DNA from: a virus
IMG/VR virus record: IMGVR_UViG_3300030419_007235
Coordinates: 1-33,531 of that record
Direction: 5' to 3' (one strand)
Length of the DNA: 33,531 nt
Below are positions 13,770 to 33,061 of the stretch, piece by piece. A program made the position numbers and the translations under genes. Under the pieces are notes generated by a model. That model had not been told where the DNA came from. It made no database searches and worked only from the letters and a program-made list of their open reading frames with translations. Position 1 is the first letter of the stretch. The number at the start of each line of letters is the position of its first letter.

Positions 13770-14057
13770 ATGGAATTACAACCATTTAATAGACATATTT
13801 TAATAATACCAGAGTATGTCGAAAAGGAAAAAAAGAAAGAACAAAGCTCCATTCTTTTGCCAGATGATTATACCAAAGTTGAGGGCAAGTATTGCTCAGC
13901 AATTGTGCAAGGGTGGGCTGAAGACTGCCGCTTCACTCTTGAAAGAAACAGTCGCCTTCTGATTGATCGTGGTATGGTTGAGGAAGTAGAACATGGTGGA
14001 GAAAAGTATTATTTGATATTAGACAATTATGTCATTGCAAAAATTATGGAGGACTAA
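13770..14057 (+). CDS. GroES-like co-chaperonin
   Basis: 95 residues, close to the usual 97 of GroES. The pattern PFNRHILIIPEYVEKEK...SILLPDDY...GKYCSAIVQG...LLIDRGMVEEVEHGGEKYYLILDNYVIAKI follows the GroES beta-barrel: an N-terminal R-x-L strand, a mobile-loop segment with SILLP in the place of GGIVL, and the closing strand ending near the C-terminus. The SILL stretch is where GroES inserts into the apical domain of GroEL. It would cap the phage GroEL encoded at 28396 or the host GroEL. GGAGATAA precedes the ATG; it follows the ribonucleotide reductase by nine bases in the same operon. Confidence 0.8.
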   Translation: MELQPFNRHILIIPEYVEKEKKKEQSSILLPDDYTKVEGKYCSAIVQGWAEDCRFTLERNSRLLIDRGMVEEVEHGGEKYYLILDNYVIAKIMED

Positions 14058-14064
14058 GGCACTA

Positions 14065-14226
14065 ATGGCACATCATTATGGAGATTTTTACCCAAATTAT
14101 GAACCCACGCCCATAAAGGGAGATAAAAGCAAAACAAAGAGGGGTAAAAAGAAAAATGATGATGTAAAGAAAGAACAGGACCAGGAGGAAGAAATAATTC
14201 CCCCAACCAATGTGCCCCCATGCTAA
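14065..14226 (+). CDS. Small charged protein of unknown function
   Basis: 53 residues from ATG 14065, which lies just after the GroES-like stop; an in-frame ATG at 14029 would overlap GroES and is less likely. The protein has an aromatic N-terminus (MAHHYGDFYPNYEP), a Lys-rich middle and an acidic patch, and ends PPTNVPPC. It looks disordered. The next gene overlaps it by 7 bases. No family recognised. Confidence 0.5.
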   Translation: MAHHYGDFYPNYEPTPIKGDKSKTKRGKKKNDDVKKEQDQEEEIIPPTNVPPC

Positions 14227-15125
14227 AATATGATAGGATAGCTATCGGAGCAACATTGAGTTCTGTTCTATATTCTTTTTATACACAGACTCCTCTTGTT
14301 TTTGTAGAAGGGGCACACATAAGTCCTTTTGACTTTTTTGATAAAGAGATTGACTTAAGTTTGCTAAAAATAGAGCCAACTTATGCTCTCAAAAAACCAG
14401 ATAATAAAAAAATAATAGTTGGAATGCCCAAACAAAAAGTATACCAAAAAATACTAACGCTATTATCTTTATCTGGGCTTACGCCTTTTTCTCATTTGGC
14501 CAAATCAATTACGATACAAAATGATAGTCTTAAAATTGCAACAGAGGGCAACAAAGTGTTTGAAATTGGATATAACAATTTAATTGTTTTTGACGATAAG
14601 AAAATAAACGGATTATCTTCGCCCATCAAACAAAATCACGATGAGATAAGGCATGTCATGGACTGGTTTGAGGTTAACCTTGGTAGCACACACGATATTG
14701 ATTATATTGAAACGGATGATATGTTTGTTAACAAGATCTTCTTTTACAGTTCACAGCGAGATTATGTGACTTCAGATAAAAAAGACTTATTGGCAATATC
14801 TTATTTGACTGAGAAAGCTGCAATTAACGATTATCAATACTCTGACACATATGCTAGATTTAAAGTTCTTAAATGTATGAAGGCTGCCGGAATCAAAGGT
14901 CCGAAAAATGGAAAAAATCCAAATTACCCTAATCGCTCTTCTGAGCCTTTCAAATGGCTTTCTCCCAAAATCAAATTGATGAGAAGGGACATCATACCGC
15001 CACCTATGGCATTATATGAAGACACGCAGAAAATTAAATTCTGCTATGACTCACCAGAAGAAGTTATTGCGAAAAATACAATAAATTTAAATTCATATAC
15101 ATCAAAATTATTAAATGTTTTATAA
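14220..15125 (+). CDS. Unknown protein, 301 residues
   Basis: No family recognised. The first 30 residues (MLKYDRIAIGATLSSVLYSFYTQTPLVFVEG) alternate a beta strand, a small-residue turn and a helix, which faintly recalls a dinucleotide-binding start, but the Gly-x-Gly-x-x-Gly motif is incomplete. The rest has no visible signature. It is AT-rich and Lys/Asn-rich compared with the neighbouring replication genes. It overlaps the upstream small gene by 7 bases and its TAA shares one base with the next ATG (TAATG), so it is translationally coupled to the NTP-transferase-like gene. Confidence 0.65.
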   Translation: MLKYDRIAIGATLSSVLYSFYTQTPLVFVEGAHISPFDFFDKEIDLSLLKIEPTYALKKPDNKKIIVGMPKQKVYQKILTLLSLSGLTPFSHLAKSITIQNDSLKIATEGNKVFEIGYNNLIVFDDKKINGLSSPIKQNHDEIRHVMDWFEVNLGSTHDIDYIETDDMFVNKIFFYSSQRDYVTSDKKDLLAISYLTEKAAINDYQYSDTYARFKVLKCMKAAGIKGPKNGKNPNYPNRSSEPFKWLSPKIKLMRRDIIPPPMALYEDTQKIKFCYDSPEEVIAKNTINLNSYTSKLLNVL

Positions 15126-16036
15126 TGGAAGAAAAACCAGTCAACAAAACAGCATTTCATCTTGCGGGCATAATTCCAGTTGCCGGTCATCAACATGATT
15201 TTGGATTTGAGTGGGATAATGCCTTAATGCCAATAGCAGAAAACTATACTGCTATTGAGCGCTCTATTATGGAGTGTGCGTATGCTGGTTGTGAAACGAT
15301 ATGGATAGTTTGTAATAACGATGTGCAACCACTACTTCGTCATAGAATTGGTGAAATGGTGCAGGATCCCATCTGGTATGGACGAATCTTGGCAGCGCAC
15401 CCGGAAGATCATAGACGCCCTATACCAATTTATTATGTGCCAATACATCCAAAAGACAGAAATAGAGTTGATTGTTATTCGTGGAGTATATTGTTCGGTG
15501 CCCTGACTTCATACTGGATTAGTAAACAAATGAGCAAGTGGGTCACACCAGACAAATATTATGTATCTTTTCCGCTTAGTGTTTATCCCGAAGAAGCCCC
15601 AAGGCAATATAGGTCTATAATTTCTAGTGAAGATAATTTTTTTTTCCGCTACAACGAAAAGACTGTCAAGGATGGAGAGTATCTTGGCTTTTCATTCGGG
15701 CCCGACGATTTTATAAAATGCAGGCAGATTATTAGAAAAGAAGGTACAAGGGAGTGGAAACATTCAGGTGCCAATATCCCAACAGAAAAGCTGCCTCTTG
15801 AAGAAAGATGGTCGGCTCGGCATTTTTCCCTTGACAAAGTGTTTAAACCTGTTATAATAAGAGAGTCAAATGTAAAAGAGTTGGAATGGTTTCACAACTT
15901 GTCTAGTTGGGAAGGATATATTAATTTTTTTGCATCTGAGGAATCAAAAAACGTCAAACGACCTTACGAGGGTCTAATTAAATACCATGAATGGAATGGT
16001 TTAGGAGTAGAAAATGACAACGAAAACGAAGGATGA
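15125..16036 (+). CDS. NTP-transferase-like (nucleotide-sugar transferase fold) protein
   Basis: 303 residues. The N-terminal part reads AGIIPVAG, then NALMPI, then AIERSIMECAYAGCETIWIVCNND (about residues 14-69). This is the order seen in nucleotidyltransferases of the GlmU/RmlA/MobA type: an NTP-binding strand, a substrate loop, then a helix and the IWIV.N strand. The Gly-rich NTP loop is reduced to PVAGHQHD, so activity is uncertain. Many aquatic phages carry relatives of unknown substrate. It overlaps the upstream gene by one base and the downstream coiled-coil gene by 23 bases. A sigma70-like promoter lies inside it at 15831. Confidence 0.55.
   Translation: MEEKPVNKTAFHLAGIIPVAGHQHDFGFEWDNALMPIAENYTAIERSIMECAYAGCETIWIVCNNDVQPLLRHRIGEMVQDPIWYGRILAAHPEDHRRPIPIYYVPIHPKDRNRVDCYSWSILFGALTSYWISKQMSKWVTPDKYYVSFPLSVYPEEAPRQYRSIISSEDNFFFRYNEKTVKDGEYLGFSFGPDDFIKCRQIIRKEGTREWKHSGANIPTEKLPLEERWSARHFSLDKVFKPVIIRESNVKELEWFHNLSSWEGYINFFASEESKNVKRPYEGLIKYHEWNGLGVENDNENEG
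15831..15858 (+). promoter_or_regulatory. Internal sigma70-like promoter upstream of the DnaE gene
   Basis: TTGACA (15831-15836), 16-bp spacer, TATAAT (15853-15858) preceded by TGT. It lies within the NTP-transferase-like gene and would drive the small coiled-coil gene and the DnaE polymerase. Confidence 0.55.
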
Positions 16037-16217: not shown

Positions 16218-16237
16218 TTTTTTAGAGGAGGGTAAGG

Positions 16238-19200
16238 ATGAGCGACAGAGTAAAGTCTAATATCCCGTTTGTGGGATTACACGCACACAGCGTAGCCGGT
16301 TCATTATTTGATGCACTTGGGTATCCCAACGAGCATATGGACTTTGCCTATAGTAATGGGTGTGATGCACTAGCGTTAACTGACCACGGGAACGCAAATG
16401 GTCTTTCTCACCAAGTACTGCACGCTAAAAAGATGAGGGAAGAGGGCAGAAATTTTAAGCCCATCTTCGGTACGGAAGCATATTTTATTCCGTCCATCAA
16501 AGAATGGCGTCAAGAGTATGAGAAGGCCATGGAGGACAAAAAACGCGCAAAAACTCTTGGTTCAACCTTGAGTGGCGCTACTGTTGAAGATGAGAATTCC
16601 AGTAAAAAGGTCCAAGATGTATTGCGCCGCCGTCGCCACCTTATCCTCCTCGCTCAAAATCAAAAAGGACTTCAGAACATTTTTAAACTGATTTCTGAAA
16701 GCTATAAAAGTGAAAACTTCTATCGCTATCCTCGTATGGACTTTGATCTCCTTGCGAAATATAGTGAGGGAGTTATTGCAGCTTCCGCATGTCTTGGAGG
16801 TGTATATGCTGGTAATTACTGGGAAAACAGGGAAAACGGCGAAGAGGCTGTTCTTGATGCAATGCGAGAAACAACTCGCAAAATGATTAACGTATTTGGT
16901 GATCGTTGGTATGGCGAGCTTCAATGGAATAACGTGCCCGAACAACATCAGCTAAATCAATATATCATCAAGATGCATGAAGAATTTGGTATCGGACTTA
17001 TTTCAACCGCAGACAGTCACTATCCAAGTCGCGATGCCTGGAAGGATCGTGAACTTTACAAGCGCCTTGGTTGGCTTGGCAAAGCCGCCCCATCTTATGA
17101 GAGCACTGAGCTTCCAATTGATGTCGAGGAGATTGGGTATGAATTGTATCCCAAAAACGGCGATCAAATGTGGGAGAGCTATAAGAAGTACTCCAAGTTG
17201 GTGGGCGTAGAATACGACGACAGCCTGGTGCTGGAGTCTATCAAACATACCCACGAAATCGCTCACCAGTTAATTGAAGATTTTCTTCCAGATAACACCG
17301 TTCGGTTGCCCGATTTCGTCGTACCAGCGGGATATACAGCGACACAGGCGCTTGTTAACATGTCATTGGAGGGTTTGCGAGATCGAGGCCTTCATAAAAA
17401 CAAAGAATATACCGAGCGCCTTCGTCATGAACTTACAGTTATTGATGACAGGGGTTTTTCAAAATATTTCTTAACAATGAAAGCAATCGCAGACAGGGCT
17501 AATAATTGTATGCTCACGGGTCCAGGTCGCGGTTCAGCCGCTGGCTCACTCGCCGCATATGCCCTTGGAATCACTCAGGTTGACCCTATTAAGTATGGAC
17601 TTCTATTTTCACGCTTTCTTCGTTCTGATGCTACCGACTATCCAGATATTGACTACGACGTAGCAGCGCCAATGGAGTTAAAAGAGCAATTAATTGAAGA
17701 ATGGGGAGATACAACTGTTGTTCCGATTTCTAACTGGAACACTCTCCAATTGCGTTCCTTGATTAAAGACATTTCCAAGTTTTACGGCATTCCTTTCAAG
17801 GAAGTAAACGAGGTTACGGGCAAGATGCTTTTAGAGGCAACCCCCGCCGCTAAGAAAGCACATGGTATTAAAGCGGGTGTTTACGCACCCACGTTTGAGG
17901 AGACAAAAGAATATTCTCCAACCTTGCAAGCATTTTTAGGCAAATACCCGCATATTGCAAGCCATATCGACAGGCTCTATGGACAGGTACGCTCTTGCTC
18001 TCGTCACGCTGGTGGTGTCGTAGTTGGTGAAAATCTTGATAAATGGATGCCCCTCATCAACTCTAAGGGAGTCCGTCAGACTCCTTGGGCAGAAGGGCAG
18101 AATGTTCGCCACCTTGAGCCAATGGGTTTTATTAAGTTTGATATTCTCGGACTATCCACGCTCGCAATGATTGACGGAGCAATTCGACACATCTTGAAGC
18201 GAGAGCACGATATAGAGGATCCGACGTTCAACGATGTAAAAGATTACTACGATAAACACCTACACCCAGATACTATTAATCTTGATAGCCAAGACGTTTA
18301 CGAGAACATCTTTCACCAAGGCAAGTGGGCAGGAATATTCCAGTTTACGGAAAAGGGGGCACAAGCATTTTGTCAGCGAGCTAAACCAACCAGCATCGTT
18401 GATATCTCTGCTATTACCTCTATTTTCCGCCCAGGACCGCTCTCAGCAAAGGTTGACGATCAGTATGTGGAGGCGAAAGAACACCCACAATATATCAAAT
18501 ATGATCACCCACTGATACAAGAGGTTACAGAGGAGACATACGGTTTCCTTATCTTCCAAGAGCAAATTGCCATCCTGGCACACAAGCTTGGTAAAGACCT
18601 GTCTCTTGATGAGGGTAACAAGCTTCGCAAGTTGTTGACCAAGAAAGGGACAGGTAAGGGTCACGAAGCTAAGATGAAAATTCACTCTAAATTTATTATC
18701 GGGTGCGTTGAAAAGGGCATACCACGCAACGTAGCAGAAGGCATCTGGGACAAGTTTGAATATTTCTCAGGATATGGTTTTAACAAATCGCACGCTGTAT
18801 CATATTCTATGCTTTCTTACCAATGTGCTTGGTTGGCACACAATCACCCCGCTGAGTGGATGGCTGCATTTTTAGATAAAGAGCCCGAGAGTAGAAAAGA
18901 AAAGGCAATTAATATTGCCAAGGGTTTTGGCTTTAATATCCGCAAATTGGATGTCAACACCTCTGGGCGTGTTTGGGAAATCTCTGAAGACGGCGAAACT
19001 CTCGTCCAACCCCTAACATCTGTTAAGGGGCTTGGAGATGCTGCGATTGACCAGATTGTACACAATCGCCCTTTTGAGAAGGTGGAGGACTTTATTTTCA
19101 ATGAAAAGATGGTATATTCCAAACTCAACAAGAAGGCACTAGATGTTCTTGTCCGCTCAGGTGCGATGAACGGGCTTGTAGACGACCGATTTAGCGGCCT

Positions 19201-19669
19201 GAAACATTTTTGGTCTGCAATTGCAGTTGACCGCCCTCGTAAGTTGAACAAGCTGGAAGATAATATTGAATTATATCGCCCTGAAGGTGATTTCGAGGAA
19301 GAGGAGATTATTCAATACACGGTGGAACTTACCGGCGTGTTTCCGATGAGCGAAGTTATGAGTGACGACATTGTAGCAAAGTTGGAGCAAAATATGATTC
19401 CTCCAATTGGAGAATTCGATCCTGACCTCAAAGTTACTTGGTTTATTCCCCGCAAGATTGTTCCGAGAAAAACAAAGAATAACAAAGACTATTGGGTTGT
19501 AGAGGTTATTGATGACACTGGCACCACTTCAAGTATTAAATGTTGGGGAGTAAATCCAAAACTTGATATTCTCTACCTTAACCGCCCATATATGGCAAAG
19601 CTTGACTGGCACCCAACGTGGGGCTTCAGTACTCGCTCATTGAGACATAATTTTAGATTATTATCTTGA
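16238..19669 (+). CDS. dnaE: DNA polymerase III alpha subunit (family C, DnaE type)
   Basis: 1143 residues, close to bacterial DnaE (about 1160). The N-terminal PHP domain keeps H15-x-H17 (GLHAHS), TDHGN (D49, H50) and TADSHYPSRDAW. The palm has GPGRGSAAGSLAAYALGIT followed by YPDIDYD, where D470 and D472 are the catalytic pair. RSCSRHAGGVVV, FRPGPLSAKVDDQYVE, YGFLIFQEQI and FNKSHAVSYSMLSYQCAWLA follow in order. The C-terminal OB-like region is present (about 1040-1143). It is a full, apparently intact replicase, and a second polymerase beside the family A gene at 2730. No clamp or clamp loader is seen in the window. Strong GAGGAGG site; probably transcribed from 15831. Confidence 0.95.
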   Translation: MSDRVKSNIPFVGLHAHSVAGSLFDALGYPNEHMDFAYSNGCDALALTDHGNANGLSHQVLHAKKMREEGRNFKPIFGTEAYFIPSIKEWRQEYEKAMEDKKRAKTLGSTLSGATVEDENSSKKVQDVLRRRRHLILLAQNQKGLQNIFKLISESYKSENFYRYPRMDFDLLAKYSEGVIAASACLGGVYAGNYWENRENGEEAVLDAMRETTRKMINVFGDRWYGELQWNNVPEQHQLNQYIIKMHEEFGIGLISTADSHYPSRDAWKDRELYKRLGWLGKAAPSYESTELPIDVEEIGYELYPKNGDQMWESYKKYSKLVGVEYDDSLVLESIKHTHEIAHQLIEDFLPDNTVRLPDFVVPAGYTATQALVNMSLEGLRDRGLHKNKEYTERLRHELTVIDDRGFSKYFLTMKAIADRANNCMLTGPGRGSAAGSLAAYALGITQVDPIKYGLLFSRFLRSDATDYPDIDYDVAAPMELKEQLIEEWGDTTVVPISNWNTLQLRSLIKDISKFYGIPFKEVNEVTGKMLLEATPAAKKAHGIKAGVYAPTFEETKEYSPTLQAFLGKYPHIASHIDRLYGQVRSCSRHAGGVVVGENLDKWMPLINSKGVRQTPWAEGQNVRHLEPMGFIKFDILGLSTLAMIDGAIRHILKREHDIEDPTFNDVKDYYDKHLHPDTINLDSQDVYENIFHQGKWAGIFQFTEKGAQAFCQRAKPTSIVDISAITSIFRPGPLSAKVDDQYVEAKEHPQYIKYDHPLIQEVTEETYGFLIFQEQIAILAHKLGKDLSLDEGNKLRKLLTKKGTGKGHEAKMKIHSKFIIGCVEKGIPRNVAEGIWDKFEYFSGYGFNKSHAVSYSMLSYQCAWLAHNHPAEWMAAFLDKEPESRKEKAINIAKGFGFNIRKLDVNTSGRVWEISEDGETLVQPLTSVKGLGDAAIDQIVHNRPFEKVEDFIFNEKMVYSKLNKKALDVLVRSGAMNGLVDDRFSGLKHFWSAIAVDRPRKLNKLEDNIELYRPEGDFEEEEIIQYTVELTGVFPMSEVMSDDIVAKLEQNMIPPIGEFDPDLKVTWFIPRKIVPRKTKNNKDYWVVEVIDDTGTTSSIKCWGVNPKLDILYLNRPYMAKLDWHPTWGFSTRSLRHNFRLLS

Positions 19670-19694
19670 CAAATAAAAAAAGCCCAGTTATAAT
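19666..19694 (+). promoter_or_regulatory. Sigma70-like promoter after the DnaE gene
   Basis: Perfect TTGACA (19666-19671, overlapping the DnaE stop), 17-bp spacer, perfect TATAAT (19689-19694). It drives the block of the GapR-like, dUTPase, zinc-knuckle and IMPDH-family genes. Confidence 0.85.
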
Positions 19695-20463: not shown

Positions 20464-20743
20464 AAAGCAAAGACGTGCTCGCGATGCGCAAATTCGTAAA
20501 GATGGAAATGAAGAGTTGGCATCCAAAGTCGCCATGTTTGGCAAATTGCCTGATAAATGCACTGCTTGTGAAAGCCCCTACGACAAAACAAACAAAGAAA
20601 TGGCGACAACTTGGAGCGTTGTTGTGAGGAAAGAAGACGAAGACAACCCGGTTCGTCTCTATTGTCCCGATTGCTGGAATACAGCACAAGAAGTACTAAG
20701 TAACTTCTTAAAAACAATGGAAGAAAAAGAAAATGAATTTTGA
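20456..20743 (+). CDS. Small zinc-knuckle protein of unknown function
   Basis: 95 residues with two CxxC pairs, CTAC (35-38) and CPDC (70-73), spaced as a treble-clef or rubredoxin-like zinc site. The N-terminus MNRKQRRARDAQIRK is strongly basic and the C-terminus acidic. Starts at GTG 20456 inside the dUTPase gene and overlaps the IMPDH-family gene by 11 bases. Nucleic-acid binding is plausible but unproven. Confidence 0.65.
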   Translation: MNRKQRRARDAQIRKDGNEELASKVAMFGKLPDKCTACESPYDKTNKEMATTWSVVVRKEDEDNPVRLYCPDCWNTAQEVLSNFLKTMEEKENEF

Positions 20744-21764
20744 AACACATGTTACATTTGATGATGTACTGTTAGTGCCCCAATATAGCGACGTTAAATC
20801 CAGAAAGGAAGTATCGCTATCATCTGAGCTGTCAAAAGGCGTCGATCTTCGTGTGCCAATCATATCCGCGCCGATGGACACCGTTTGTGAAAGAGCTATG
20901 GCAACTAAAATGGCTGAATTTGGCGGACTTGGAATTATTCACCGGTATAATTCTATTGATGAACAGTCCACTCTTGTTCGCGACTCCTGTCATACCGGAA
21001 ATAAAACTGTCGGAGCAGCCATAGGCATTACAGGTGATTATATTGAGCGTGCCGGAGCATTAATAGAGGCTGGCGTGAGCGTGTTGTGTTTGGATGTCGC
21101 TCATGGAGATCATGTACTGATGCACGTCGCTGCTCACAATATTGTTGATAAATTTGGACACAAGGTGCATGTCATGGCGGGCAACATCGCAACTCATGCC
21201 GCTGCCGTCGAGTTGGCAGACATTGGCGTCAACAGTGTCCGAGTGGGGATCGGAGGAGGTTCAATTTGTTCCACTCGTATCCAAACTGGGCATGGCATGC
21301 CGACACTCGCATCTGTTATTGATTGTGCAAAGGCCAAAAAACAATTTCCAGATCTTAAAATTGTTGCTGATGGTGGTATTAAAACATCTGGTGATATGGT
21401 TAAGGCGCTGGCTGCTGGAGCCGATTTTGTAATGGTGGGATCTCTGTTGGCTGCTACAACAGAGGCACCTGGCGAAATTGTTTATAAAGATGGTGAGAAA
21501 TTTAAATCTTATCGTGGCATGGCAAGTAAGGACGCCCAGATGGACTGGAGAGGAAAGACCTCATCTTTGGAGGGTGTGGCAACGGTAATTCCCTATAAAG
21601 GTCGGGTGCTTCCAATCCTCGAAGGGTTCGAAAATGGAATCCGCAGTGGATTGTCCTATTCCGGCGTTCGCACCCTACAACAACTTCGCGAGAATGCCCG
21701 CTTCATTCGTCAGACCGCTTCAGGACTATCAGAGAGCAATACCCACATCATGTGGAGATATTGA
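20733..21764 (+). CDS. IMP dehydrogenase / GMP reductase family enzyme without CBS domains
   Basis: 343 residues forming one TIM barrel: TFDDVLLVPQYSDV (8-21), ISAPMDTVC (44-52), DVAHGD (121-126), the nucleophile loop VGIGGGSICSTR with C179, then VADGGI and FVMVGSLLA for phosphate binding, and SYRGMASKDAQ. The late flap reads SLEGVATVIPYKGRV, which is nearer IMPDH (EGV) than GMP reductase (EGK). The CBS regulatory pair that IMPDH normally carries after the nucleophile-side strands is missing, giving a GMPR-like length. It would raise GTP and dGTP precursors. Which reaction it runs cannot be settled by eye. Confidence 0.88.
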   Translation: MNFETHVTFDDVLLVPQYSDVKSRKEVSLSSELSKGVDLRVPIISAPMDTVCERAMATKMAEFGGLGIIHRYNSIDEQSTLVRDSCHTGNKTVGAAIGITGDYIERAGALIEAGVSVLCLDVAHGDHVLMHVAAHNIVDKFGHKVHVMAGNIATHAAAVELADIGVNSVRVGIGGGSICSTRIQTGHGMPTLASVIDCAKAKKQFPDLKIVADGGIKTSGDMVKALAAGADFVMVGSLLAATTEAPGEIVYKDGEKFKSYRGMASKDAQMDWRGKTSSLEGVATVIPYKGRVLPILEGFENGIRSGLSYSGVRTLQQLRENARFIRQTASGLSESNTHIMWRY

Positions 21765-23035: not shown

Positions 23036-23065
23036 ATAAAAGCCGTGGAATTCCACGGCTTTTAT
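23036..23065 (+). terminator. Perfect palindromic bidirectional terminator
   Basis: A perfect 30-base palindrome centred on GAATTC: arm AAAAGCCGTGG (23038-23048) and its exact complement CCACGGCTTTT (23053-23063), plus AT and AT flanks. The GC-rich stem with an A run before and T run after is suited to terminate from either side. It separates the acidic-protein gene from the membrane-protein gene. Confidence 0.75.
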
Positions 23066-23096: not shown

Positions 23097-23486
23097 ATGA
23101 ATTCGTTTCTTTGGTTTATTTTGGGGTTCGCATTTTGTCGTATCATGCAAAATCTGTACATAATTGGAAAAATTTCTATTTTTATGAGAAAAGCAGCAGA
23201 GGATGCTCTGAAGCTTCTTGGCACTGCTGCCGAAGATATCGCATATATTCGTCAATTAAAACACCAAACTGTAGAAAAATACGGCGATTCAGAACAATTG
23301 AAAATAATTAAGAATACAGATGATCATGTTTTCAATTCTTGGAAACGTTCCGCTGTGGAGAATTTTAAAAGAAATTTTCCTGAACCCTATAACAAGGCTA
23401 TTGAGTTTAAAAACTGGGATGAGGCGATGGAAGTTTTAGACAGGATTCACAAGTCAGAGCTTGAGAGAACAAATGTTACTAAATGA
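23097..23486 (+). CDS. Small membrane-anchored helical protein
   Basis: 129 residues. The N-terminal 30 residues (NSFLWFILGFAFCRIMQNLYIIGKISIF) form a hydrophobic segment, followed by a charged helical domain (RKAAEDALKLLGTAAEDIAYIRQLKHQTVEKYG onwards) with no recognised family. The layout suggests an inner-membrane anchor with a cytoplasmic domain. GAGG precedes ATG 23097. It overlaps the following kinase-like gene by about 14 bases. Confidence 0.6.
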   Translation: MNSFLWFILGFAFCRIMQNLYIIGKISIFMRKAAEDALKLLGTAAEDIAYIRQLKHQTVEKYGDSEQLKIIKNTDDHVFNSWKRSAVENFKRNFPEPYNKAIEFKNWDEAMEVLDRIHKSELERTNVTK

Positions 23487-24687
23487 ACTTAGAAAATTAA
23501 TTAATCAAATCAGGCTTGAAGAGGCTCTTGAAAAGGGTGTCAAGGAAGTCAAACATCCTTTCAAAGCAGTTTTTATCTTTGGGCCCGCAGGTGCAGGTAA
23601 GACTACGACCAAAGACTTTCTTGGATTGCCAGATGAATTTGTCCCTTTAACATCAGATGACGCTATTGAAAAAGTGTTTCCCAAATTTGGTATCTCGCTA
23701 GATTTTCGAGAGGAGTATCCTAAAAAAACAGAAATTAGAAAGCTTCTTCAACAAAGGACTTCTGAAAAGACAATAAGAAAAGTAAACCAGATGCTTCCTC
23801 TCTTTTTTGACACCACGGGAGAAAATGTTTCAAAACTTATTAAAATCATGGATGCTCTGGAAAGAGTTGGATACGATATTGCGGTTTTTCAAATAAACGT
23901 GCCACCGGATGTATCTATTGCAGCAGATTTGGGCAGGGATCGCACCTTGGGTTCAGAAATCATACAATCTATTTCTAACGATTATCAGAGGGACGTGGCT
24001 AAAGGCGCTGCCTATCTTAATCAACTTGGTAGACGAGGGGTGACACTTTTATCCAATTCTATTTATCCAAACATTTTTCATTTTGCAAAACCAGGCACAC
24101 TTCGACCGGGAGTTCCAAAAGATATTCTGTGGCAAGGAAAGTTGAAGTTAAACGATCCAGAGGGAAAAGCAGATCCGACATACATTGACAACCCGTTTTA
24201 TGGAGCATCGGAAAAAGAAAATGCCAAAATTCTTAACGATGCTAAAAAAGTTGCACAAGAATGGATTTCGGACAGAAACCCTAAAAACCCTATCGGAAGA
24301 GTGGTTTTAAATGCGCTGTCATATATCCAGTCTCAGGGTGTTGCCGACTTGGGAGATCAAATGTCAGACATTGCCAAATACATAGTGTGGGCAACTGAGA
24401 ACGGTAAGCCAGTCCCACCTGTCGTCAATGAAGCATCGAAAGCGCTTTTTGATCTTGAGGCAAAACTGAGAAAAACAACTCCGGCTCCCAAAAAGCCCGG
24501 AAAAGATGTCACAGCCAAAAGCGTAAAAGGAGTCGATGGACCCGTTCCCGCCTCTCTTCTGCCAACCTATGCCGATCCAGCGACACCAATTAAAAGCCCT
24601 GCTGATATACTTTATAAAGATAAGCCCTTAAAGCTAAGAGAGTTAAGAGATTTTGTTAGCCAGTTCAATAAAAAAAATAAACCTTGA
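23473..24687 (+). CDS. P-loop kinase-like protein (zeta-toxin-like) with a candidate capsid-targeting leader
   Basis: 404 residues from ATG 23473 (an in-frame TTG at 23461 is less likely). Walker A GPAGAGKT spans 37-44, and FFDTTGEN (about 111-118) and DLGRDRTLGSEII (about 150-162) follow the order of zeta-toxin and related small-molecule kinases. After about residue 220 the sequence is unfamiliar, with a Pro/Lys linker near 335-350 and a basic C-terminus. Residues 1-17 form an amphipathic helix ending L15-E16-E17-A18, which fits the T4 prohead-protease consensus (Leu/Ile)-x-Glu before Ala/Gly. Such leaders target internal head proteins. So it may be packaged and injected; substrate unknown. 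It overlaps the upstream membrane-protein gene. Confidence 0.65.
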   Translation: MLLNELRKLINQIRLEEALEKGVKEVKHPFKAVFIFGPAGAGKTTTKDFLGLPDEFVPLTSDDAIEKVFPKFGISLDFREEYPKKTEIRKLLQQRTSEKTIRKVNQMLPLFFDTTGENVSKLIKIMDALERVGYDIAVFQINVPPDVSIAADLGRDRTLGSEIIQSISNDYQRDVAKGAAYLNQLGRRGVTLLSNSIYPNIFHFAKPGTLRPGVPKDILWQGKLKLNDPEGKADPTYIDNPFYGASEKENAKILNDAKKVAQEWISDRNPKNPIGRVVLNALSYIQSQGVADLGDQMSDIAKYIVWATENGKPVPPVVNEASKALFDLEAKLRKTTPAPKKPGKDVTAKSVKGVDGPVPASLLPTYADPATPIKSPADILYKDKPLKLRELRDFVSQFNKKNKP

Positions 24688-24712
24688 CAGACATATTAAA
24701 TCTTGTTATATT
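24684..24712 (+). promoter_or_regulatory. Sigma70-like promoter
   Basis: TTGACA (24684-24689, overlapping the kinase-like stop), 17-bp spacer ending in TGT, TATATT (24707-24712). It drives the small gene at 24738 and the ClpP-like gene. Confidence 0.82.
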
Positions 24713-24737: not shown

Positions 24738-25046
24738 ATGAAAGCTTGGGCGTGGAGACGTGAAACTGACAATAACAAAGCAAACTATTGTCTTCAAGTG
24801 GAGAATATCAAGGGCAAAAGAGCATTAAACAAGGTTGTTAAGATACTTGGTGATTGGGAGATCATCGGTGATGGGTTTAATTCCAAAACCGAAGAGTACA
24901 CGATGATTTTTTCAACGGATTTTGATAATTCACACAAATGGCAAGCTTGGGCTGAAAAGTTTCCTATTTATTTGGTTGAGCTAACATCACATGGAAACGA
25001 AAAATTACGAAACAAAAAGCTTGTAAAAGCGGGGGCAGTATTATGA
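24738..25046 (+). CDS. Small protein of unknown function
   Basis: 102 residues, Trp/Lys-rich, alternating predicted strands and helices. No family recognised, no membrane segment. It has a strong AAGGAG site and its own consensus promoter, and overlaps the ClpP-like gene by 4 bases (ATGA), so the two are made together. A role as partner or substrate adaptor of the ClpP-like protein is possible but only positional. Confidence 0.6.
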   Translation: MKAWAWRRETDNNKANYCLQVENIKGKRALNKVVKILGDWEIIGDGFNSKTEEYTMIFSTDFDNSHKWQAWAEKFPIYLVELTSHGNEKLRNKKLVKAGAVL

Positions 25047-25702
25047 TTTTTGTACCAAAAATGGCCGCGAAGAAAAAAGAGGAAGAACAGGTAGATGCAG
25101 AAAAGATCGAGCCGGTTCATATCGTAGAAAAAAAAGATGACACACCTCGTATCATGGGGATTTGTGGCGATCTTGATGAGGAAAAAGCCGGAGAGCTAAT
25201 GTATGGCATGATTGCGCTATACGAAAGTGGCACTAGTTATGCCTTAAAAGACCCTAAAGATGAAAACTCTGATATTTTGGTTTCATACGAGCCATTTGAA
25301 TTTATTATTTCCACTCTCGGTGGAAACGCGCAAGAAATGTTTAGCCTTCACGATCTTATGCGCGTTCTTAGGGAAAATTGCGACATCCATACCGTGGGTC
25401 TCGGTAAGGTGTTCTCAGCAGGTACGCTCTTGTTAGCGTCTGGAAGCAAAGGGAAGCGCAGGATTGGTAAGAATTGTCGTGTCATGATCCACAGTGTTCT
25501 CGGTGGAAATCACGGCTCTCTTCACAATCTTGAAAACGAGATGGATGAAATTCGTTGGACCCAAGATCGCTATATTGAGGCGATGGTTGAGGAGACTAAT
25601 ATGACAAAAGCTCATCTCAAGAAGATTCTTAACCGAAAGGTTAATGCCTACTTTACCGCAGAGGAGGCAATAGAACTCGGTATTGCGGATATTATATTTT
25701 AA
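25043..25702 (+). CDS. ClpP-like serine protease (S14 family), catalytic Asp apparently replaced
   Basis: 219 residues. FEFIISTLGGNAQEMFSLHDLMR (86-108) is the ClpP oxyanion/handle region, GKVFSAGTLLLASG holds the nucleophile S125, and VMIHSVLGG holds H150. In the E. coli alignment the catalytic Asp before FLSAPEA falls on N201 (RKVNAYFTAEEA), so the triad looks like Ser-His-Asn. A Lys/Glu-rich N-terminal extension of about 35 residues is not standard. S14 proteins in phages can be head-maturation proteases or degrade host proteins; without a ClpX partner here, either is possible. ATG 25043 overlaps the upstream gene; an in-frame ATG at 25061 is an alternative start. Confidence 0.85.
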   Translation: MIFVPKMAAKKKEEEQVDAEKIEPVHIVEKKDDTPRIMGICGDLDEEKAGELMYGMIALYESGTSYALKDPKDENSDILVSYEPFEFIISTLGGNAQEMFSLHDLMRVLRENCDIHTVGLGKVFSAGTLLLASGSKGKRRIGKNCRVMIHSVLGGNHGSLHNLENEMDEIRWTQDRYIEAMVEETNMTKAHLKKILNRKVNAYFTAEEAIELGIADIIF

Positions 25703-27598: not shown

Positions 27599-28393
27599 TT
27601 GAAATCACCACTACGCTATCCAGGCGGCAAAAGCCGTGCTGTGAAACATATACTTCCACACTTTCCAGAAGATATCCGAGAGGTGTGCTCTCCGTTCTTG
27701 GGTGGGGGCTCAATTGAGCTAGCCTTGGCTGAGAGGGGTATACAGGTTTACGGATATGACACTTTTGAGCCGTTAATTTGGTTTTGGCTTGCTCTTCTTG
27801 GAAACCCCGAGGCGTTGGCCAACGAGGCAGACTCGCTCAGAAAGTATAAAGACTACTATTATGGACACCGAGGCTTGCCCAAGGATGATTTTAATTTAAT
27901 CAAGGAAGAGATGAAAAATGAAAAAAAATACTCTCTTCAAAACGCAGCAAAGTTTTATGCCCTGAATCGTTCGTCCTTTTCAGGGGCAACTCTTAGCGGA
28001 GGATGGTCCAAGCGGGCATCTTATGAAAGGTTTACAGATTCGTCCATAGAAAGGGTGCGGCAATTCAAAGAGCCGAAGTTGTATGTTTCCGCGCAACATT
28101 TCAAGCATTCAATCCCAGCACACCCGAAAACTTTTCTATATCTTGATCCGCCTTATCTTTTGGGCAAAGATAGAGAACACCTTTATGGAAATGCGGGAGA
28201 CAAGCATAAAGGGTTTGACCACGCGGGCTTGGCAAATATACTAAAAAAAAGAGATAATTGGATTTTATCTTATAATAATTGCCCAGAGATATTGAAACTA
28301 TATGAAGGATATGATATTCTATATCCAGATTGGAAGTACGGCATGTCGTCAGATAAGAACTCCAAAGAAGTATTAATTATTAACAAGGTTTAA
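27599..28393 (+). CDS. dam: DNA adenine methyltransferase (D12 class, Dam-like)
   Basis: 264 residues with all D12-class N6-adenine methylase motifs: PLRYPGGK (4-11), SPFLGGGSIEL (31-41, SAM-binding motif I), YGYD (51-54) and catalytic motif IV DPPY (183-186). It methylates adenine in phage or host DNA, either to protect against restriction or to mark strands; the target sequence cannot be read from protein. Starts at TTG 27599 with AGAGG upstream and lies directly before groEL with a two-base gap, so both are cotranscribed. Position between the unknown large protein and a chaperonin gives no further hint. Confidence 0.93.
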   Translation: MKSPLRYPGGKSRAVKHILPHFPEDIREVCSPFLGGGSIELALAERGIQVYGYDTFEPLIWFWLALLGNPEALANEADSLRKYKDYYYGHRGLPKDDFNLIKEEMKNEKKYSLQNAAKFYALNRSSFSGATLSGGWSKRASYERFTDSSIERVRQFKEPKLYVSAQHFKHSIPAHPKTFLYLDPPYLLGKDREHLYGNAGDKHKGFDHAGLANILKKRDNWILSYNNCPEILKLYEGYDILYPDWKYGMSSDKNSKEVLIINKV

Positions 28394-28395
28394 AG

Positions 28396-29967
28396 ATGAG
28401 CAGAAAATATTGTTCCAACGAGGAGCTACAATCAAAAATATTACAAGGTGTTGAGACTTTAGCTGATAATGTCGCAACGACACTTGGTCCCAAGGGTCGC
28501 AACGTCATTTTGCAAGAGAAGGGCAAGCGCCCCATCATTACAAAGGATGGTGTAACCGTTGCCAAGTTTGTCGATTTTGATGACTACTTCATGAACGCGG
28601 GGGCCCAAGTTATAAAACAAGCAGCGGAACAAACAAACACTGATGCCGGAGATGGCACAACTACTACAACTATTCTTTGCCGAGCAATTCTTCAACATGC
28701 TCAGCGATATATAACCGCAGGGGTTTCGCCAGTTGAGCTTAAGCGGGGTATCGATAAGGCAGTACAAGTTGTCGTTGCCAATCTTGAGGAGCAATCACGC
28801 CCAATTTCTTCTCTTGACGACATTAAGCGAATTGCTACAATTTCGGCCAATGGAGACGAAGTAATTGGAAACCTTGTTGCTACTGCTGTTGATCAAGCGG
28901 GCAAAGATGGAGCAATCACAATAGAAGAAGCTCGATCTGTTGAGACATCCCTTGATCTTGTGGAGGGTTTTCGGCTCGCGTCTGGTTGGGCAGCGTCGGC
29001 TTTCGTTACCCACGAACGAACAGCTACTACAAGATATAGCAACCCGTTGCTCTTGGTCACGGACGAAAAAATTGAAACAGTGGATCAAATTCTTCCTGTG
29101 CTTGAGGTTGTCGCACGAGAGGGCAGACCCCTTGTTATTTTTGCAGAAGAGATTGAGGGACAGGCATTAGCCGCACTGATTATGAATACAGTTCGTGGTA
29201 CTATGAAAGTGGCAGCGGTGAAAGCTCCTCGTTATGGTGAAGAGCGAAGAGGCATTCTTGAAGATCTTGCCACCTCTACAGGTGCAACATTTGTCAATAG
29301 GTTGAGCGGCATGAAAGTGTCCGAAGCAAAACTTCAAGACCTTGGGTCAGCCTCTAAGATTGAAATCACTAGATACTTGACCACTATTATGGGAGGTAAA
29401 GGTGATCTAGATAATGTAGAAAAAAGAATTGAAACACTTAAGTCACAATTAGCGGATACAGAAAATATTCATGAATGTGAACGACTACAAGATCGTATCA
29501 CAAAGCTTGCATCTGGTGTTGCAGTAATTCGAGTCGGCGGTGCCACTGAGGTAGAAATGATCGAGAAGAAGCACCGTATTGAAGACGCTCTTGAGGCGGT
29601 TAAATCTGCCCAGCAAGAGGGGATTGTCGCAGGCGGGGGCACAGCCTTTATTCGTGCATCAAATGATTTAAGTGTTGAGACCGAAAATGAAGAACAGGAA
29701 CTGGGAGTAGAAATAATTAAAGGCGCAATTCAAGAACCAATTCGTCAAATGGCAATTAATGCCGGTTCGTCACCAGACTTGACCGTCTCACGTATTTTAC
29801 TATCTGAACAAAATGAAGGGTGGGATTTTTCGACAGGAGAGTTTGTCGATCTGTTTGAAACAGGTATTCTCGACCCGGCCAAGGTGGCTCGATGTGCTTT
29901 GCAAAATGCAGCTTCCGCAGCAGGCACATTAATCACAGCAAATTATGCTATTGTCGAGGCTCAATAG
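28396..29967 (+). CDS. groEL: GroEL chaperonin, phage-encoded
   Basis: 523 residues, against about 548 for bacterial GroEL. LGPKGRNVIL (30-39), ITKDGVTVAK (48-57), DAGDGTTTTTIL (83-94, with D86 equivalent to catalytic Asp87) and EGIVAGGGTAFIRA all match the equatorial domain; the apical domain (about 190-370) is present but more divergent. The usual C-terminal Gly-Gly-Met repeat is absent; it ends NYAIVEAQ. It would form the ATP-driven folding cage for phage proteins, probably with the GroES-like protein at 13770. It is far from that gene and instead follows the dam gene by two bases, with a weak AAGG ribosome site. Phages with GroEL are known but uncommon. Confidence 0.96.
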   Translation: MSRKYCSNEELQSKILQGVETLADNVATTLGPKGRNVILQEKGKRPIITKDGVTVAKFVDFDDYFMNAGAQVIKQAAEQTNTDAGDGTTTTTILCRAILQHAQRYITAGVSPVELKRGIDKAVQVVVANLEEQSRPISSLDDIKRIATISANGDEVIGNLVATAVDQAGKDGAITIEEARSVETSLDLVEGFRLASGWAASAFVTHERTATTRYSNPLLLVTDEKIETVDQILPVLEVVAREGRPLVIFAEEIEGQALAALIMNTVRGTMKVAAVKAPRYGEERRGILEDLATSTGATFVNRLSGMKVSEAKLQDLGSASKIEITRYLTTIMGGKGDLDNVEKRIETLKSQLADTENIHECERLQDRITKLASGVAVIRVGGATEVEMIEKKHRIEDALEAVKSAQQEGIVAGGGTAFIRASNDLSVETENEEQELGVEIIKGAIQEPIRQMAINAGSSPDLTVSRILLSEQNEGWDFSTGEFVDLFETGILDPAKVARCALQNAASAAGTLITANYAIVEAQ

Positions 29968-29987: not shown

Positions 29988-29991
29988 AGTG

Positions 29992-30273: not shown

Positions 30274-30280
30274 GAGACAA

Positions 30281-30928: not shown

Positions 30929-30937
30929 ATAAAATAT

Positions 30938-30966
30938 TTGACATATAACAAAAGACTTGTTATAAT
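30938..30966 (+). promoter_or_regulatory. Sigma70-like promoter
   Basis: Perfect TTGACA (30938-30943), 17-bp spacer ending in TGT, perfect TATAAT (30961-30966). Serves the run of small genes 30989-32537. One of the closest matches to the consensus in the window. Confidence 0.87.
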
Positions 30967-30988
30967 ATTAATATACAATGGAGAAATT

Positions 30989-31547: not shown

Positions 31548-31821
31548 ACAAAACAGATTTACTTCAAGCGACAATCAATTCAAGATTCGACCAGTGTATG
31601 TCAATCCCGACTTTGTTGTTTGTTTGAGAGAAGATCTTCAAACTTTAAAAATATTAAAAGAAGATAGGCAGCTTTTGCCTGACGGCTTAGATTCCCGTCA
31701 CGAATTTACCAAACTCCATATTAACAGTGGCAACAGTTCTTTTGATATCACAGTGGTTGGATCACCAGATATCGTAGAACAAAAGCTTGCAGCTAAGACC
31801 AATTCTTTACTCAAGGGGTGA
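31516..31821 (+). CDS. Small protein of unknown function
   Basis: 101 residues. Two starts compete: ATG 31510 directly abuts GGAGG (31505-31509), whereas GTG 31516 has six bases of spacing and is preferred. Strand-rich sequence (FKIRPVYVNPDFVVCLRED...FTKLHINSGNSSFDITVVGSP) and a short basic C-terminus. No recognised family. It is followed 4 bases later by the next gene's start. Confidence 0.55.
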   Translation: MPTVKLTELFKQNRFTSSDNQFKIRPVYVNPDFVVCLREDLQTLKILKEDRQLLPDGLDSRHEFTKLHINSGNSSFDITVVGSPDIVEQKLAAKTNSLLKG

Positions 31822-31825
31822 TAAA

Positions 31826-32275
31826 ATGATTGAATGTTTTCTGAGAGAGCAAAGCGAATACGGAAGCCTGCTTCCAGATTACGGCAAGAAAAGGCGGCAG
31901 GGTAAATATCACGGCTCCGATTTTTATGACACTGTGCCGGGATACGGTGTTAAAAAGTGGGTGGTTGGGGTCTATATTGATGTTGATTATGATCAGCATT
32001 TAGACAGTATGCCAGAGGAAGAAGTTGTAAGGCAGTGCATTGAATACCTTAATCAGCCGCCACCACGGAAGAAGTATCAAAAGAAAAAACCACAACCCCT
32101 ATATGGAAACTTGGACCCTGAGCCTTTGCAATATTGGGTTGGCGAAGATTCAGGCGGAAAATATATTGGAGCACTTTTAATCACCGACCAAAGAAAGAGT
32201 AAAAAGTTTTGGGGAGTTGGTGGACAAGGGCGTGTTAAAAGAAAACGTGGGCGACCACGCAAGGATGAACAATGA
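31826..32275 (+). CDS. Small protein with AT-hook-like C-terminus
   Basis: 149 residues from ATG 31826 with AGGGGTG upstream; the longer in-frame ORF from 31787 overlaps the previous gene and is rejected. The N-terminal two-thirds are mixed, with a Lys-rich linker (PPPRKKYQKKKPQP), and the C-terminus is RVKRKRGRPRKDEQ. The core GRPRK is the AT-hook that binds the minor groove of AT-rich DNA in chromatin-type proteins. It may associate with phage or host DNA; otherwise unknown. Confidence 0.6.
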   Translation: MIECFLREQSEYGSLLPDYGKKRRQGKYHGSDFYDTVPGYGVKKWVVGVYIDVDYDQHLDSMPEEEVVRQCIEYLNQPPPRKKYQKKKPQPLYGNLDPEPLQYWVGEDSGGKYIGALLITDQRKSKKFWGVGGQGRVKRKRGRPRKDEQ

Positions 32276-32312
32276 GCAAACAATCACCAATAGTATATAC
32301 AGTGGAGCGATA

Positions 32313-32537
32313 ATGATTTGGACAGCAATTACATATAGTGTTTCGCAAGAGAAGATCGAATATACGATTCTTGAAGCGCCCATGGATTTTGATAAAGCAT
32401 ACACTATTGCCTCATCAGAGAGTGACAACATTGTCTTATCTCTTGTTAAGGGCAATCACCAAGGCGCTATCTATATTCCCAATCTTGATGTCAAGCTGAC
32501 TCGCTGTGGTCGCTCAAATTATTTGGGCGAATTTTAA
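32313..32537 (+). CDS. Small protein of unknown function
   Basis: 74 residues from ATG 32313, preceded by GGAG five to six bases upstream. An in-frame ATG at 32265 would overlap the preceding gene by 11 bases and has an abutting, badly spaced site. The sequence (IWTAITYSVSQEKIEYTILEAPMDFDKAYTIASSESDNIVL...) is strand-rich. No family recognised. Confidence 0.5.
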   Translation: MIWTAITYSVSQEKIEYTILEAPMDFDKAYTIASSESDNIVLSLVKGNHQGAIYIPNLDVKLTRCGRSNYLGEF

Positions 32538-32555
32538 TTTTTTTTAAAAAAATAC

Positions 32556-32583
32556 TTGACGCTTGCAGTGGGGTGATTAAATT
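32556..32583 (+). promoter_or_regulatory. Promoter candidate upstream of hsp20
   Basis: TTGACG (32556-32561), then TAAATT (32578-32583) with 16-bp spacing, weaker than the others. A small CCCC/GGGG hairpin (32592-32605) follows in the leader, ahead of AAGGAGA. Heat-shock sigma32-type elements (CTTGAA, CCCCAT) are not seen. Confidence 0.4.
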
Positions 32584-32623
32584 ATAGATAGCCCCAAGAC
32601 AGGGGTGTACAAGGAGAAATAAA

Positions 32624-33061
32624 ATGTCAAACTCAATCACGCCCGTCAGGGGCACAATTACCAATCCATTTGGTTCTATTTTTTCGGATCGTTTCTTTGA
32701 TTCTTTCTTCAACGATGCTCCGATCTATGGGGTAAATCGAAGTAGCCGCCGAGACACCGGGCTTAGTCCGAGGTTCAATGTTCAACAAAGCCAGACAGGA
32801 TATACCATTTCCGTTGCTATCCCAGGTATCAACAAAAAAGATGTCAACGTTGACGTTGAGGCCAATAATCTTACGATTTCATACACACAAGAAGAGAACA
32901 CAGAATCCTCCTTTGCTTGCTCTTCATTCCGGCGCTCTTGGCGTCTCCCAGAAGGGACTGATATAGAGAATATCACCGCTGCCTATGAAAACGGTATTCT
33001 ATCACTTTCAGTTCCTACCGCAGATGCTACAACTTATACTCGCACCATTGAAATTAAGTGA
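32624..33061 (+). CDS. Hsp20 / small heat-shock protein (alpha-crystallin domain)
   Basis: 145 residues. After a variable Phe-rich N-terminus (FGSIFSDRFFDSFF, residues 17-30) the alpha-crystallin domain runs to the end: SPRFNVQQSQTGYTISVAIPGINKKDVNVDVEANNLTISY (about 48-87), SFRRSWRLPEGTDIENITAAYENGILSLSVP (about 101-131), and the C-terminal I-x-I anchor in TRTIEIK. These motifs are conserved. It binds unfolding proteins and hands them to chaperonins, so it fits with GroEL and GroES of this phage. Many aquatic T4-like phages carry Hsp20. Strong AAGGAGA site and a good intrinsic terminator after it. Confidence 0.93.
   Translation: MSNSITPVRGTITNPFGSIFSDRFFDSFFNDAPIYGVNRSSRRDTGLSPRFNVQQSQTGYTISVAIPGINKKDVNVDVEANNLTISYTQEENTESSFACSSFRRSWRLPEGTDIENITAAYENGILSLSVPTADATTYTRTIEIK

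What the first reader, a model, noticed from the sequence alone, without database searches (positions are those of the whole stretch)
13770..33061. Phage-encoded chaperone set: GroES-like, GroEL and Hsp20, plus a ClpP-like protein
One 20-kb stretch carries a complete GroEL (28396), a GroES-like co-chaperonin (13770), Hsp20 (32624) and a ClpP-like S14 protein (25043). A phage with its own chaperonin and matching lid is uncommon; T4 brings only the lid (gp31). The pair being in separate operons suggests different timing. Inference: the phage brings a full folding pathway for its own virion proteins.
Basis: partly seen in the sequence, partly recalled or inferred. Interest (0 to 1): 0.72.

Follow-up and report, generated by a model that had tools for sequence, protein, structure and literature searches.

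The report
Phage carrying its own GroEL and lid
A large, uncultured T4-like phage carries its own protein-folding chamber and matching lid; such pairs are already known in other phages, but in this phage group the two genes travel together and the chamber has lost contacts that normally hold it in its resting state, which makes it a testable odd variant.

Summary
GroEL (28396-29967), Hsp20 (32624-33061) and ClpP-like (25043-25702) are unambiguous. The GroES-like gene (13770-14057) is just under Pfam's cut-off alone, but family, predicted fold and synteny make it a Cpn10. The window is a fragment of an IMG/VR virus; longer relatives carry T4-type capsid (gp23) and prohead-protease (gp21) genes.

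GroEL and lid form a constant pair: 32 of 32 searched records with at least 15 kb upstream of GroEL carry the lid gene. ClpP-like lies upstream of GroEL in 71 of 79 loci. Hsp20 is optional (18 of 50).

'Uncommon' is too strong: cultured Flavobacterium, Cellulophaga and Vibrio phages carry both genes, and virioplankton chaperonins were surveyed in 2017. Separate transcription units are plausible; different timing is unsupported. The ClpP-like protein is probably not the main head protease.

What looks new is the clade's GroEL. ATP-site residues are kept, but R197 (0 of 78 basic) and D83 (1 of 78 acidic), which hold the resting state, are gone and the lid/substrate groove is remodelled. Best reading: a dedicated group I chaperonin with a short-roofed lid, most likely serving a 62-69 kDa gp23-type capsid protein. 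Binding, client and switching are inferred, not shown.

The parts
13770..14057 (+). GroES-like co-chaperonin (95 aa), mobile-loop core SILLP at residues 27-31, shortened roof
   Evidence: ORF, 90 families; fold; synteny in relatives
28396..29967 (+). GroEL (523 aa), group I chaperonin, no GGM tail
   Evidence: residues; tree
25043..25702 (+). ClpP-like S14 protein (219 aa; start codon uncertain), Ser125-His150-Asn201
   Evidence: upstream of GroEL in 71 of 79 relatives
32624..33061 (+). Hsp20 / small heat-shock protein (145 aa), ends with I-E-I-K
   Evidence: optional in relatives
9942..9970 (+). sigma-70-like promoter (11 of 12) before helicase, ribonucleotide reductase and GroES-like genes
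   Evidence: consensus match only
15831..15858 (+). sigma-70-like promoter (12 of 12) downstream of the GroES-like gene
   Evidence: consensus match only
19666..19694 (+). sigma-70-like promoter (12 of 12) between the GroES-like and GroEL genes
   Evidence: consensus match only
24684..24712 (+). sigma-70-like promoter (11 of 12) before the run 24738, ClpP, 25712, 26375, methyltransferase, GroEL
   Evidence: gaps within the run 24 bp or less with the start codons I chose
30938..30966 (+). sigma-70-like promoter (12 of 12) before the run that ends with Hsp20
   Evidence: consensus match only
27599..28393 (+). D12-class N6-adenine DNA methyltransferase gene, 2 bp before GroEL
   Evidence: Pfam E=6.7e-32

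Best explanation
A clade of large, uncultured T4-like phages carries its own group I chaperonin and a cognate, short-roofed co-chaperonin. The lid docks its hydrophobic mobile-loop tripeptide (here ILL, followed by P) in the apical groove of the phage GroEL and closes an ATP-driven chamber. The main client is most likely the phage's gp23-type capsid precursor (62-69 kDa in relatives), larger than T4 gp23 (about 56 kDa), which T4 folds with host GroEL plus its own roofless lid gp31. Here the phage brings the chamber as well, so it need not depend on the host ring. In the phage GroEL the D83-K327 and R197-E386 pairs that hold the resting (T) state, and the E461-R452 inter-ring pair, are each missing one partner, so I infer a ring that opens easily and may work as single rings or two-lid 'footballs'. 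Shown by sequence or model: the genes, the constant pairing, the lid's fold, the residue losses, the gp23/gp21 genes in relatives. Inferred: that the two proteins bind each other, the client, the allosteric consequence, ring number.
For: Pairing: lid gene in 31 of 32 records with >=15 kb upstream of GroEL; the 32nd has a diverged one, E=6.5e-15. ATP-site residues K51, D52, D87, T89-T91, D398, D495 kept in 80 of 80 relatives. Lid: Cpn10 fold with a disordered stretch at residues 18-26; hydrophobic tripeptide followed by P in 31 of 31 listed members; alignments leave 5-8 residues fewer than in bacterial GroES at the roof, and gp31 also lacks the roof loops (PMC6318259 passages). Client: gp23 family in 9 of 12 large relatives, eight of the nine measured at 587-648 aa, 62-69 kDa. 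Allostery: R197 basic in 0 of 78 clade rows against 23 of 23 bacterial and 10 of 12 other phage GroELs; D83 acidic in 1 of 78 against 23 of 23 and 5 of 12; R197 lost with E386 kept in 78 of 78 clade rows and 0 of 12 isolates. Roles of these pairs from PMC5941174 and PMC10723157 passages. Groove: Y203, R231, V264 and E257 replaced in 78 of 78 while F204, L237, L259 and R268 stay in 78 of 78.
Against: No interaction, assembly or client was measured or modelled. Phage chaperonins EL, OBP and AR9 work without any lid (PMC9598537 passages), so a phage GroEL need not use one. The neighbourhood is replication and nucleotide metabolism with sigma-70-type promoters, which fits early proteins as well as capsid. 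The window itself holds no recognised capsid gene. Loss of D83, E209, E461 and K80 is shared with many other phage GroELs (acid or base kept in only 5, 4, 5 and 7 of 12 isolates), and Mx1 and EL also lack R197, so part of the pattern may be general phage divergence. The bacterial panel is mostly Bacteroidota (16 of 23). The lid's mobile loop is not clearly longer than in GroES, unlike gp31. The single-sequence hhalign to E. coli GroES is weak.
Confidence: 0.6

Rival explanations
1. The two proteins do not work together: the lid caps the host GroEL, as gp31 does, and the phage GroEL works without a lid, as EL, OBP and AR9 chaperonins do.
For: Genes 14 kb apart, not adjacent; lid-free phage chaperonins exist (PMC9598537 passages); gp31 precedent (PMC3012670 passages).
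Against: The pair is constant in 32 of 32 records; the GroEL is 43% identical to E. coli GroEL and keeps F204, L237, L259 and R268 of the groove, whereas EL shares 22% (PMC7185714 passage).
Confidence: 0.15
2. The chaperonin pair mainly serves early phage enzymes (the large DnaE polymerase, ribonucleotide reductase) rather than virion proteins.
For: Both genes lie among replication and nucleotide genes; near-consensus sigma-70 promoters on the coding strand, 8 against 0; no T4-type late motif on the coding strand.
Against: A gp23-type capsid gene, the textbook client, is present in relatives; chaperones made early can be used late.
Confidence: 0.25
3. The GroES-like protein caps the phage ClpP-like ring, as plastid CPN11/20/23 caps ClpP in Chlamydomonas.
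For: Best solved sequence match of the lid family is Chaperonin 11 of entry 7ekq (E=3.6e-9), the Chlamydomonas ClpP complex (title; PMC8889267 passage); ClpP-like gene upstream of GroEL in 71 of 79 loci.
Against: Lid kept in the 3 whole records searched whose GroEL has about 10 kb upstream without a ClpP-like frame (G006, G030, G034; ClpP elsewhere in them was not sought). Three of seven checked ClpP docking-pocket positions are charged or glycine in the window (Y60 to E, F112 to R, L114 to G; pocket positions recalled, alignment uncertain there). CPN11 also has a short roof, which can explain the score.
Confidence: 0.05
4. Host chromosome contamination or a recent capture of host groEL.
For: An 89% identical copy lies in a record titled candidate division WOR-3 bacterium chromosome.
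Against: That record has 100-N gaps beside the phage pieces, which lie at three scrambled places, and has another GroEL of 63% identity to E. coli. Clade on one side of a branch, stem 1.11.
Confidence: 0.01

Closest known systems
T4 gp31 / RB49 CocO co-chaperonins with host GroEL
   Same: Cpn10 fold (gp31 VIA Z 8.6-9.0), short or absent roof, T4-type capsid gene in relatives
   Different: Here the phage encodes the GroEL ring too; loop not clearly lengthened; no sequence match to gp31 at E<=1
Phages with both groES and groEL: Flavobacterium immuto and elemo, Cellulophaga Calle, Vibrio pv27
   Same: Both genes on one phage genome; pv27 also has a ClpP-like protein
   Different: Adjacent (immuto, elemo), one gene between (Calle), about 7 kb apart (pv27), 12-26 kb apart here. 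Their GroELs keep R197, and E386 except D in Calle, and are about 45% identical or less to this one
EL, OBP, AR9 phage chaperonins
   Same: GroEL homologues in large phages
   Different: Reported to work without a co-chaperonin (PMC9598537 passages); EL far more diverged (PMC7185714 passages)
Virioplankton GroELs (Marine et al. 2017, seen only as cited in PMC9611531 and PMC7185714; paper not held)
   Same: Chaperonin-carrying phages with large genomes, gene order tied to GroEL phylogeny (PMC9611531 passage)
   Different: Whether this clade is among their groups could not be checked
Cyanophage Hsp20
   Same: Small heat-shock protein in marine cyanophages (titles and abstract starts of PMC3827213 and PMC5028025 in listings)
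   Different: Optional in this clade

Membership tests
Group I chaperonin (GroEL/Cpn60) | Cpn60 sequence family over full length | tested here: met
   Pfam E=4.2e-73, residues 22-521; 43% identity to E. coli
Group I chaperonin (GroEL/Cpn60) | ATP-site residues D52, D87, TTT 89-91, D398, D495 | tested here: met
   window and 80 of 80 relatives
Group I chaperonin (GroEL/Cpn60) | Requires a co-chaperonin | tested here: inconclusive
   constant co-occurrence, no binding test
Group I chaperonin (GroEL/Cpn60) | Double ring of 14 | not testable with these tools
   E461 of the E461-R452 ring contact is acidic in 1 of 78; K105 and R452 are basic in 75 and 76 of 78
GroES/Cpn10 | Cpn10 sequence family | tested here: met
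   window alone just under the Pfam cut-off; 24 of 30 members hit at E<=0.01; 13 of 46 records over the cut-off, 25 of 46 at E<=0.1
GroES/Cpn10 | Cpn10 beta-barrel fold | tested here: met
   on the model
GroES/Cpn10 | Mobile loop with hydrophobic tripeptide | tested here: met
   31 of 31 listed members; loop of low confidence in the model
GroES/Cpn10 | Heptamer that caps GroEL | not testable with these tools
   -
T4 gp31 family | Sequence relationship to gp31 | tested here: inconclusive
   structure match; gp31 not among the 11 sequence hits at E<=1
Hsp20 | Alpha-crystallin domain | tested here: met
   Pfam E=8.5e-18
ClpP (peptidase S14) | Ser-His-Asp triad | tested here: inconclusive
   Ser and His in 84 of 84 frames; third position Asn in 51 and Asp in 33, Asn in the window
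ClpP (peptidase S14) | Encoded with a Clp ATPase | not tested
   none among the window proteins scanned; whole genomes not scanned
Head maturation protease of S14 type | Best family match is a head maturation protease | tested here: met
   best PHROG is head maturation protease, E=3.8e-14; the pv27 relative is annotated so
Head maturation protease of S14 type | Sits with portal and capsid genes as the prohead protease | tested here: not met
   no recognised head gene in the window; S77 prohead protease in 8 of 12 large relatives
T4-like phage | gp23 capsid and gp21 protease | tested here: met
   in relatives only: 9 of 12 and 8 of 12 records; not found in the window, which is a fragment

The most novel reading that the evidence does not exclude
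This phage clade carries a naturally 'unlocked' group I chaperonin: the salt bridges that enforce the resting state and part of the ring-ring interface have been removed and fixed, and the ring is matched to a short-roofed lid, giving a lid-ready (single-ring or football) machine specialised for an oversized T4-type capsid protein. It would be a natural counterpart of the laboratory mutant D83A/R197A.
Probability: 0.3. Interest if true: 0.7.

Novelty: new variant of a known kind. Interest (0 to 1): 0.45.

Why it matters
Whether a chaperonin's cooperative switching is needed for folding, or is a cost of serving many clients, is usually tested with laboratory mutants. A phage clade that has fixed the loss of the same contacts while keeping ATP-site residues and a lid offers a natural test with one suspected client. 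It also extends the T4 gp31 story: a T4-type phage that supplies chamber as well as lid need not depend on the host ring for capsid folding.

Tried and rejected
Host contamination or recent host capture: rejected. ClpP-like as the prohead protease: judged unlikely because of a separate S77 protease in relatives, although its best PHROG is 'head maturation protease' and the pv27 homologue is annotated so. Lid for ClpP instead of GroEL: kept only as a weak rival. T4-type late promoters: 5 TATAAATA hits, all on the minus strand; 9 of 100 shuffles reach 5. tblastn of the window's lid and of one diverged member (L086) in the phage collection: no match at E<=0.01. Megablast of 20 kb of the window in the phage collection: no match. 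Hhalign of the lid family against E. coli GroES alone was weak (probability 12, E 0.0025), so the fold rests. The host could not be named. Marine et al. 2017 is not held. A GroEL-GroES complex could not be predicted. The second structure job was not used.

Rows dropped before counts: 37 of 80 GroEL loci, mostly on short contigs, were not searched as whole records (searches used 43 GroEL-bearing and 3 lid-bearing records). Of 263 GroEL relatives the tool kept 80. One of 31 lid sequences (L087) was left out of alignment A2 because its frame had no Met start near the match. The tree used 29 of 78 clade rows and left out fragments L147 and L174, the over-long L168, the phage copy L172 and the diverged L216 and L217; its root is a midpoint and it warns of long branches. 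The residue panel of 23 bacterial rows holds 16 Bacteroidota by the origin of their handles and a fragment (L147). Records are not independent; L019 and L020 have the same gap length. In the gap table I used later start codons than one search lists for five genes (26375, 30983, 31525, 31832, 32308). Residue counts are for 80 relatives, for 78 distinct clade rows including the window.
Full report
What the window is. The window is a 33,531-base virus record of IMG/VR, with no tRNA genes found and a tightly packed run of genes on the + strand. Family matches include a single-strand DNA-binding protein, UvsX-like recombinase, 5'-exonuclease, DnaB-like helicase, ribonucleotide reductase, DnaE-type polymerase, dUTPase, IMP dehydrogenase, a D12-class DNA methyltransferase, GroEL and Hsp20. 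A 20-kb stretch has no megablast match in 50,697 phage records, so that collection shows no close cultured relative.

The four genes. GroEL, Hsp20 and the ClpP-like protein pass Pfam cut-offs with wide margins. The GroES-like protein does not: Cpn10 20.1 bits against 21.1. A search for it found four relatives, 71-74% identical, and a profile of five sequences found it in 34 of 46 whole records. The 31 distinct sequences collected share a loop with three hydrophobic residues followed by proline and a [DEQ]N[YH] motif near the C-terminus. Twenty-four of 30 members hit Pfam Cpn10 and 23 of 30 hit PHROG 'co-chaperonin GroES' at E<=0.01. The AlphaFold model has mean pLDDT 82 with a stretch under 50 at residues 18-26, where the mobile loop should be. 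Foldseek puts Cpn10 structures first, seven entries at E<=0.001 including T4 gp31; the VIA second look gives 16 co-chaperonin entries at Z 10.3-7.7 before the first oxidoreductase at 6.9.

Constant pairing. A GroEL search in IMG/VR found 263 relatives, of which 80 were kept, on contigs of up to 190 kb. I searched 43 of these 80 as whole records. Thirty-one of 43 carry the lid gene on the same strand, 12.4-26.4 kb upstream of GroEL (median 15.6 kb); 11 of the 12 others have less than 15 kb upstream. Among the 32 records with at least 15 kb, 31 have it, and the last, G036, has a diverged copy, E=6.5e-15 with the larger profile, about 12.5 kb upstream on the same strand by its coordinates. ClpP-like lies 0.5-2.9 kb upstream of GroEL in 71 of 79 loci with at least 3 kb upstream; Hsp20 lies downstream in 18 of 50 loci with at least 3 kb downstream, and Pfam HSP20 occurs in 16 of 43 whole records. 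So GroEL and lid are the fixed unit, ClpP nearly so, and Hsp20 is optional.

Phage lineage. Of 12 large relatives searched, 9 carry a gp23-type capsid gene and 8 an S77 prohead protease; none of 8 carries a family B polymerase. Eight of the nine capsid frames were measured: 587-648 aa, 62-69 kDa from the first Met. In a tree of 61 GroELs the 29 sampled clade members form one side of a branch (100/100, stem 1.11), with none of the 22 bacterial or 10 cultured-phage rows inside (midpoint root, long branches flagged). An 89% identical copy in a WOR-3 'chromosome' lies in phage pieces at three scrambled places with 100-N gaps beside them, so it is not host evidence.

The phage GroEL. The ATP-site residues checked are invariant in 80 relatives. 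Against 23 bacterial and 12 other phage GroELs, the clade (78 distinct rows with the window) differs: R197 is S, A or T in all 78, with no base at positions 195-198 (bacteria basic 23 of 23, isolates 10 of 12); D83 is acidic in 1 of 78 (23 of 23; 5 of 12); K80 basic in 10 of 78 (22 of 23; 7 of 12); E209 acidic in 0 of 78 (22 of 23; 4 of 12); E257 acidic in 0 of 78 (22 of 23; 9 of 12); Y203 in 0 of 78 (21 of 23; 8 of 12); E461 acidic in 1 of 78 (20 of 23; 5 of 12). The partners E386 (78 of 78), K327 (basic in 76 of 78) and R452 (basic in 76 of 78) stay. Published work says that D83-K327 and R197-E386 stabilise the taut state and that E461-R452 supports the ring interface (PMC5941174 passages), that removing the first two frees the apical domains, and that R58-E209 forms on ATP binding (PMC10723157 passages). 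I infer an easily opening ring. Cautions: losses at D83, K80, E209 and E461 are common among the other phage GroELs too, and Mx1 lacks both D83 and R197; what is peculiar to this clade in the panel is loss of R197 with E386 kept, 78 of 78 against 0 of 12. K105, which passes signals between rings, is basic in 75 of 78. The C-terminal GGM tail is missing from the window's protein, as from other phage GroELs shown.

The lid. Alignment leaves it 5 residues shorter than a thermophile GroES and with an 8-residue gap against E. coli GroES (a weak alignment), in both cases at the roof. gp31 also lacks the roof loops, which is thought to help fit the 56-kDa gp23 (PMC6318259 passages), and gp23 folding needs GroEL plus gp31 (PMC3012670 passages). 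These are the grounds for naming the capsid protein as the most likely client. No result here shows the interaction or the client.

Transcription. Sigma-70 sites with at least 11 of 12 matches number 8 on the + strand and 0 on the - strand of the window, and 265 against 21 in the 80 relatives; with a looser rule there are 69 in 20 kb against 42.4 (sd 6.2) in shuffles. Sites at 9942, 15831, 19666, 24684 and 30938 would place the lid with helicase and reductase, GroEL with ClpP, and Hsp20 in a third unit. These are consensus matches, not evidence of function. All are of one type, so 'different timing' has no support.

ClpP-like. Ser125 and His150 are invariant in 84 frames; the third position is Asn in 51 and Asp in 33. 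Three of seven checked positions of the pocket that docks Clp ATPases in E. coli (positions recalled) are charged or glycine in the window; relatives vary. Its best PHROG is a head maturation protease, but relatives have a separate S77 prohead protease, which argues against that role. Its job is unknown; work with a host Clp ATPase is the default guess.

What is known. Cultured phages with both genes: Flavobacterium immuto (adjacent), elemo (adjacent, reverse order), Cellulophaga Calle (one gene between), Vibrio pv27 (about 7 kb apart, with a ClpP-like gene elsewhere) (PMC12063606 passage). A paper states that some phages have both (PMC7185714 passage), and Marine et al. 2017 surveyed virioplankton chaperonins (as cited in PMC9611531, passage; not read). 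The pair is therefore a known kind; the fixed residue losses, the constant long-range spacing and the short-roofed lid make this a variant. My literature searches covered open papers with capped lists; I saw no description of this clade in the titles, abstract starts and passages shown.

Noticed in passing
window 16238-19669 and 2730-3932: A DnaE-type polymerase (1143 aa) beside a short PolA-like frame (400 aa), while 8 of 8 large T4-like relatives searched have no family B polymerase; the nearest cultured-phage DnaE listed is about 30% identical.
   Followed up: partly
window 20733-21764: IMP dehydrogenase (Pfam E=1.9e-108), found near dUTPase and DnaE in the relatives L161-L163 too.
   Followed up: partly
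window, + strand: Eight near-consensus sigma-70 promoters on the coding strand and none on the other; 265 against 21 in 80 relatives.
   Followed up: partly
L143; CP070664.1 (G047) 585-6664, 203942-213476, 458211-461148: A WOR-3 'chromosome' record holds pieces of a close relative of this phage with 100-N gaps beside them: apparently phage contigs binned into a bacterial assembly.
   Followed up: yes
window 23461-24687: Zeta-toxin-like kinase domain (Pfam E=9e-6) in a 408-aa protein just before the ClpP-GroEL run.
   Followed up: no
12 of 80 loci, e.g. L063, L049, L081: A second ClpP-like frame several kb upstream of the first.
   Followed up: no
window 23036-23065, - strand: A 13-pair hairpin followed by T-rich sequence, like a terminator for the minus strand although no long gene was seen there.
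   Followed up: no
window 3920-4756: 278-aa protein without Pfam or PHROG match whose glycine-rich start and SGSGLVSGAS stretch look tubulin/FtsZ-like by eye only.
   Followed up: no
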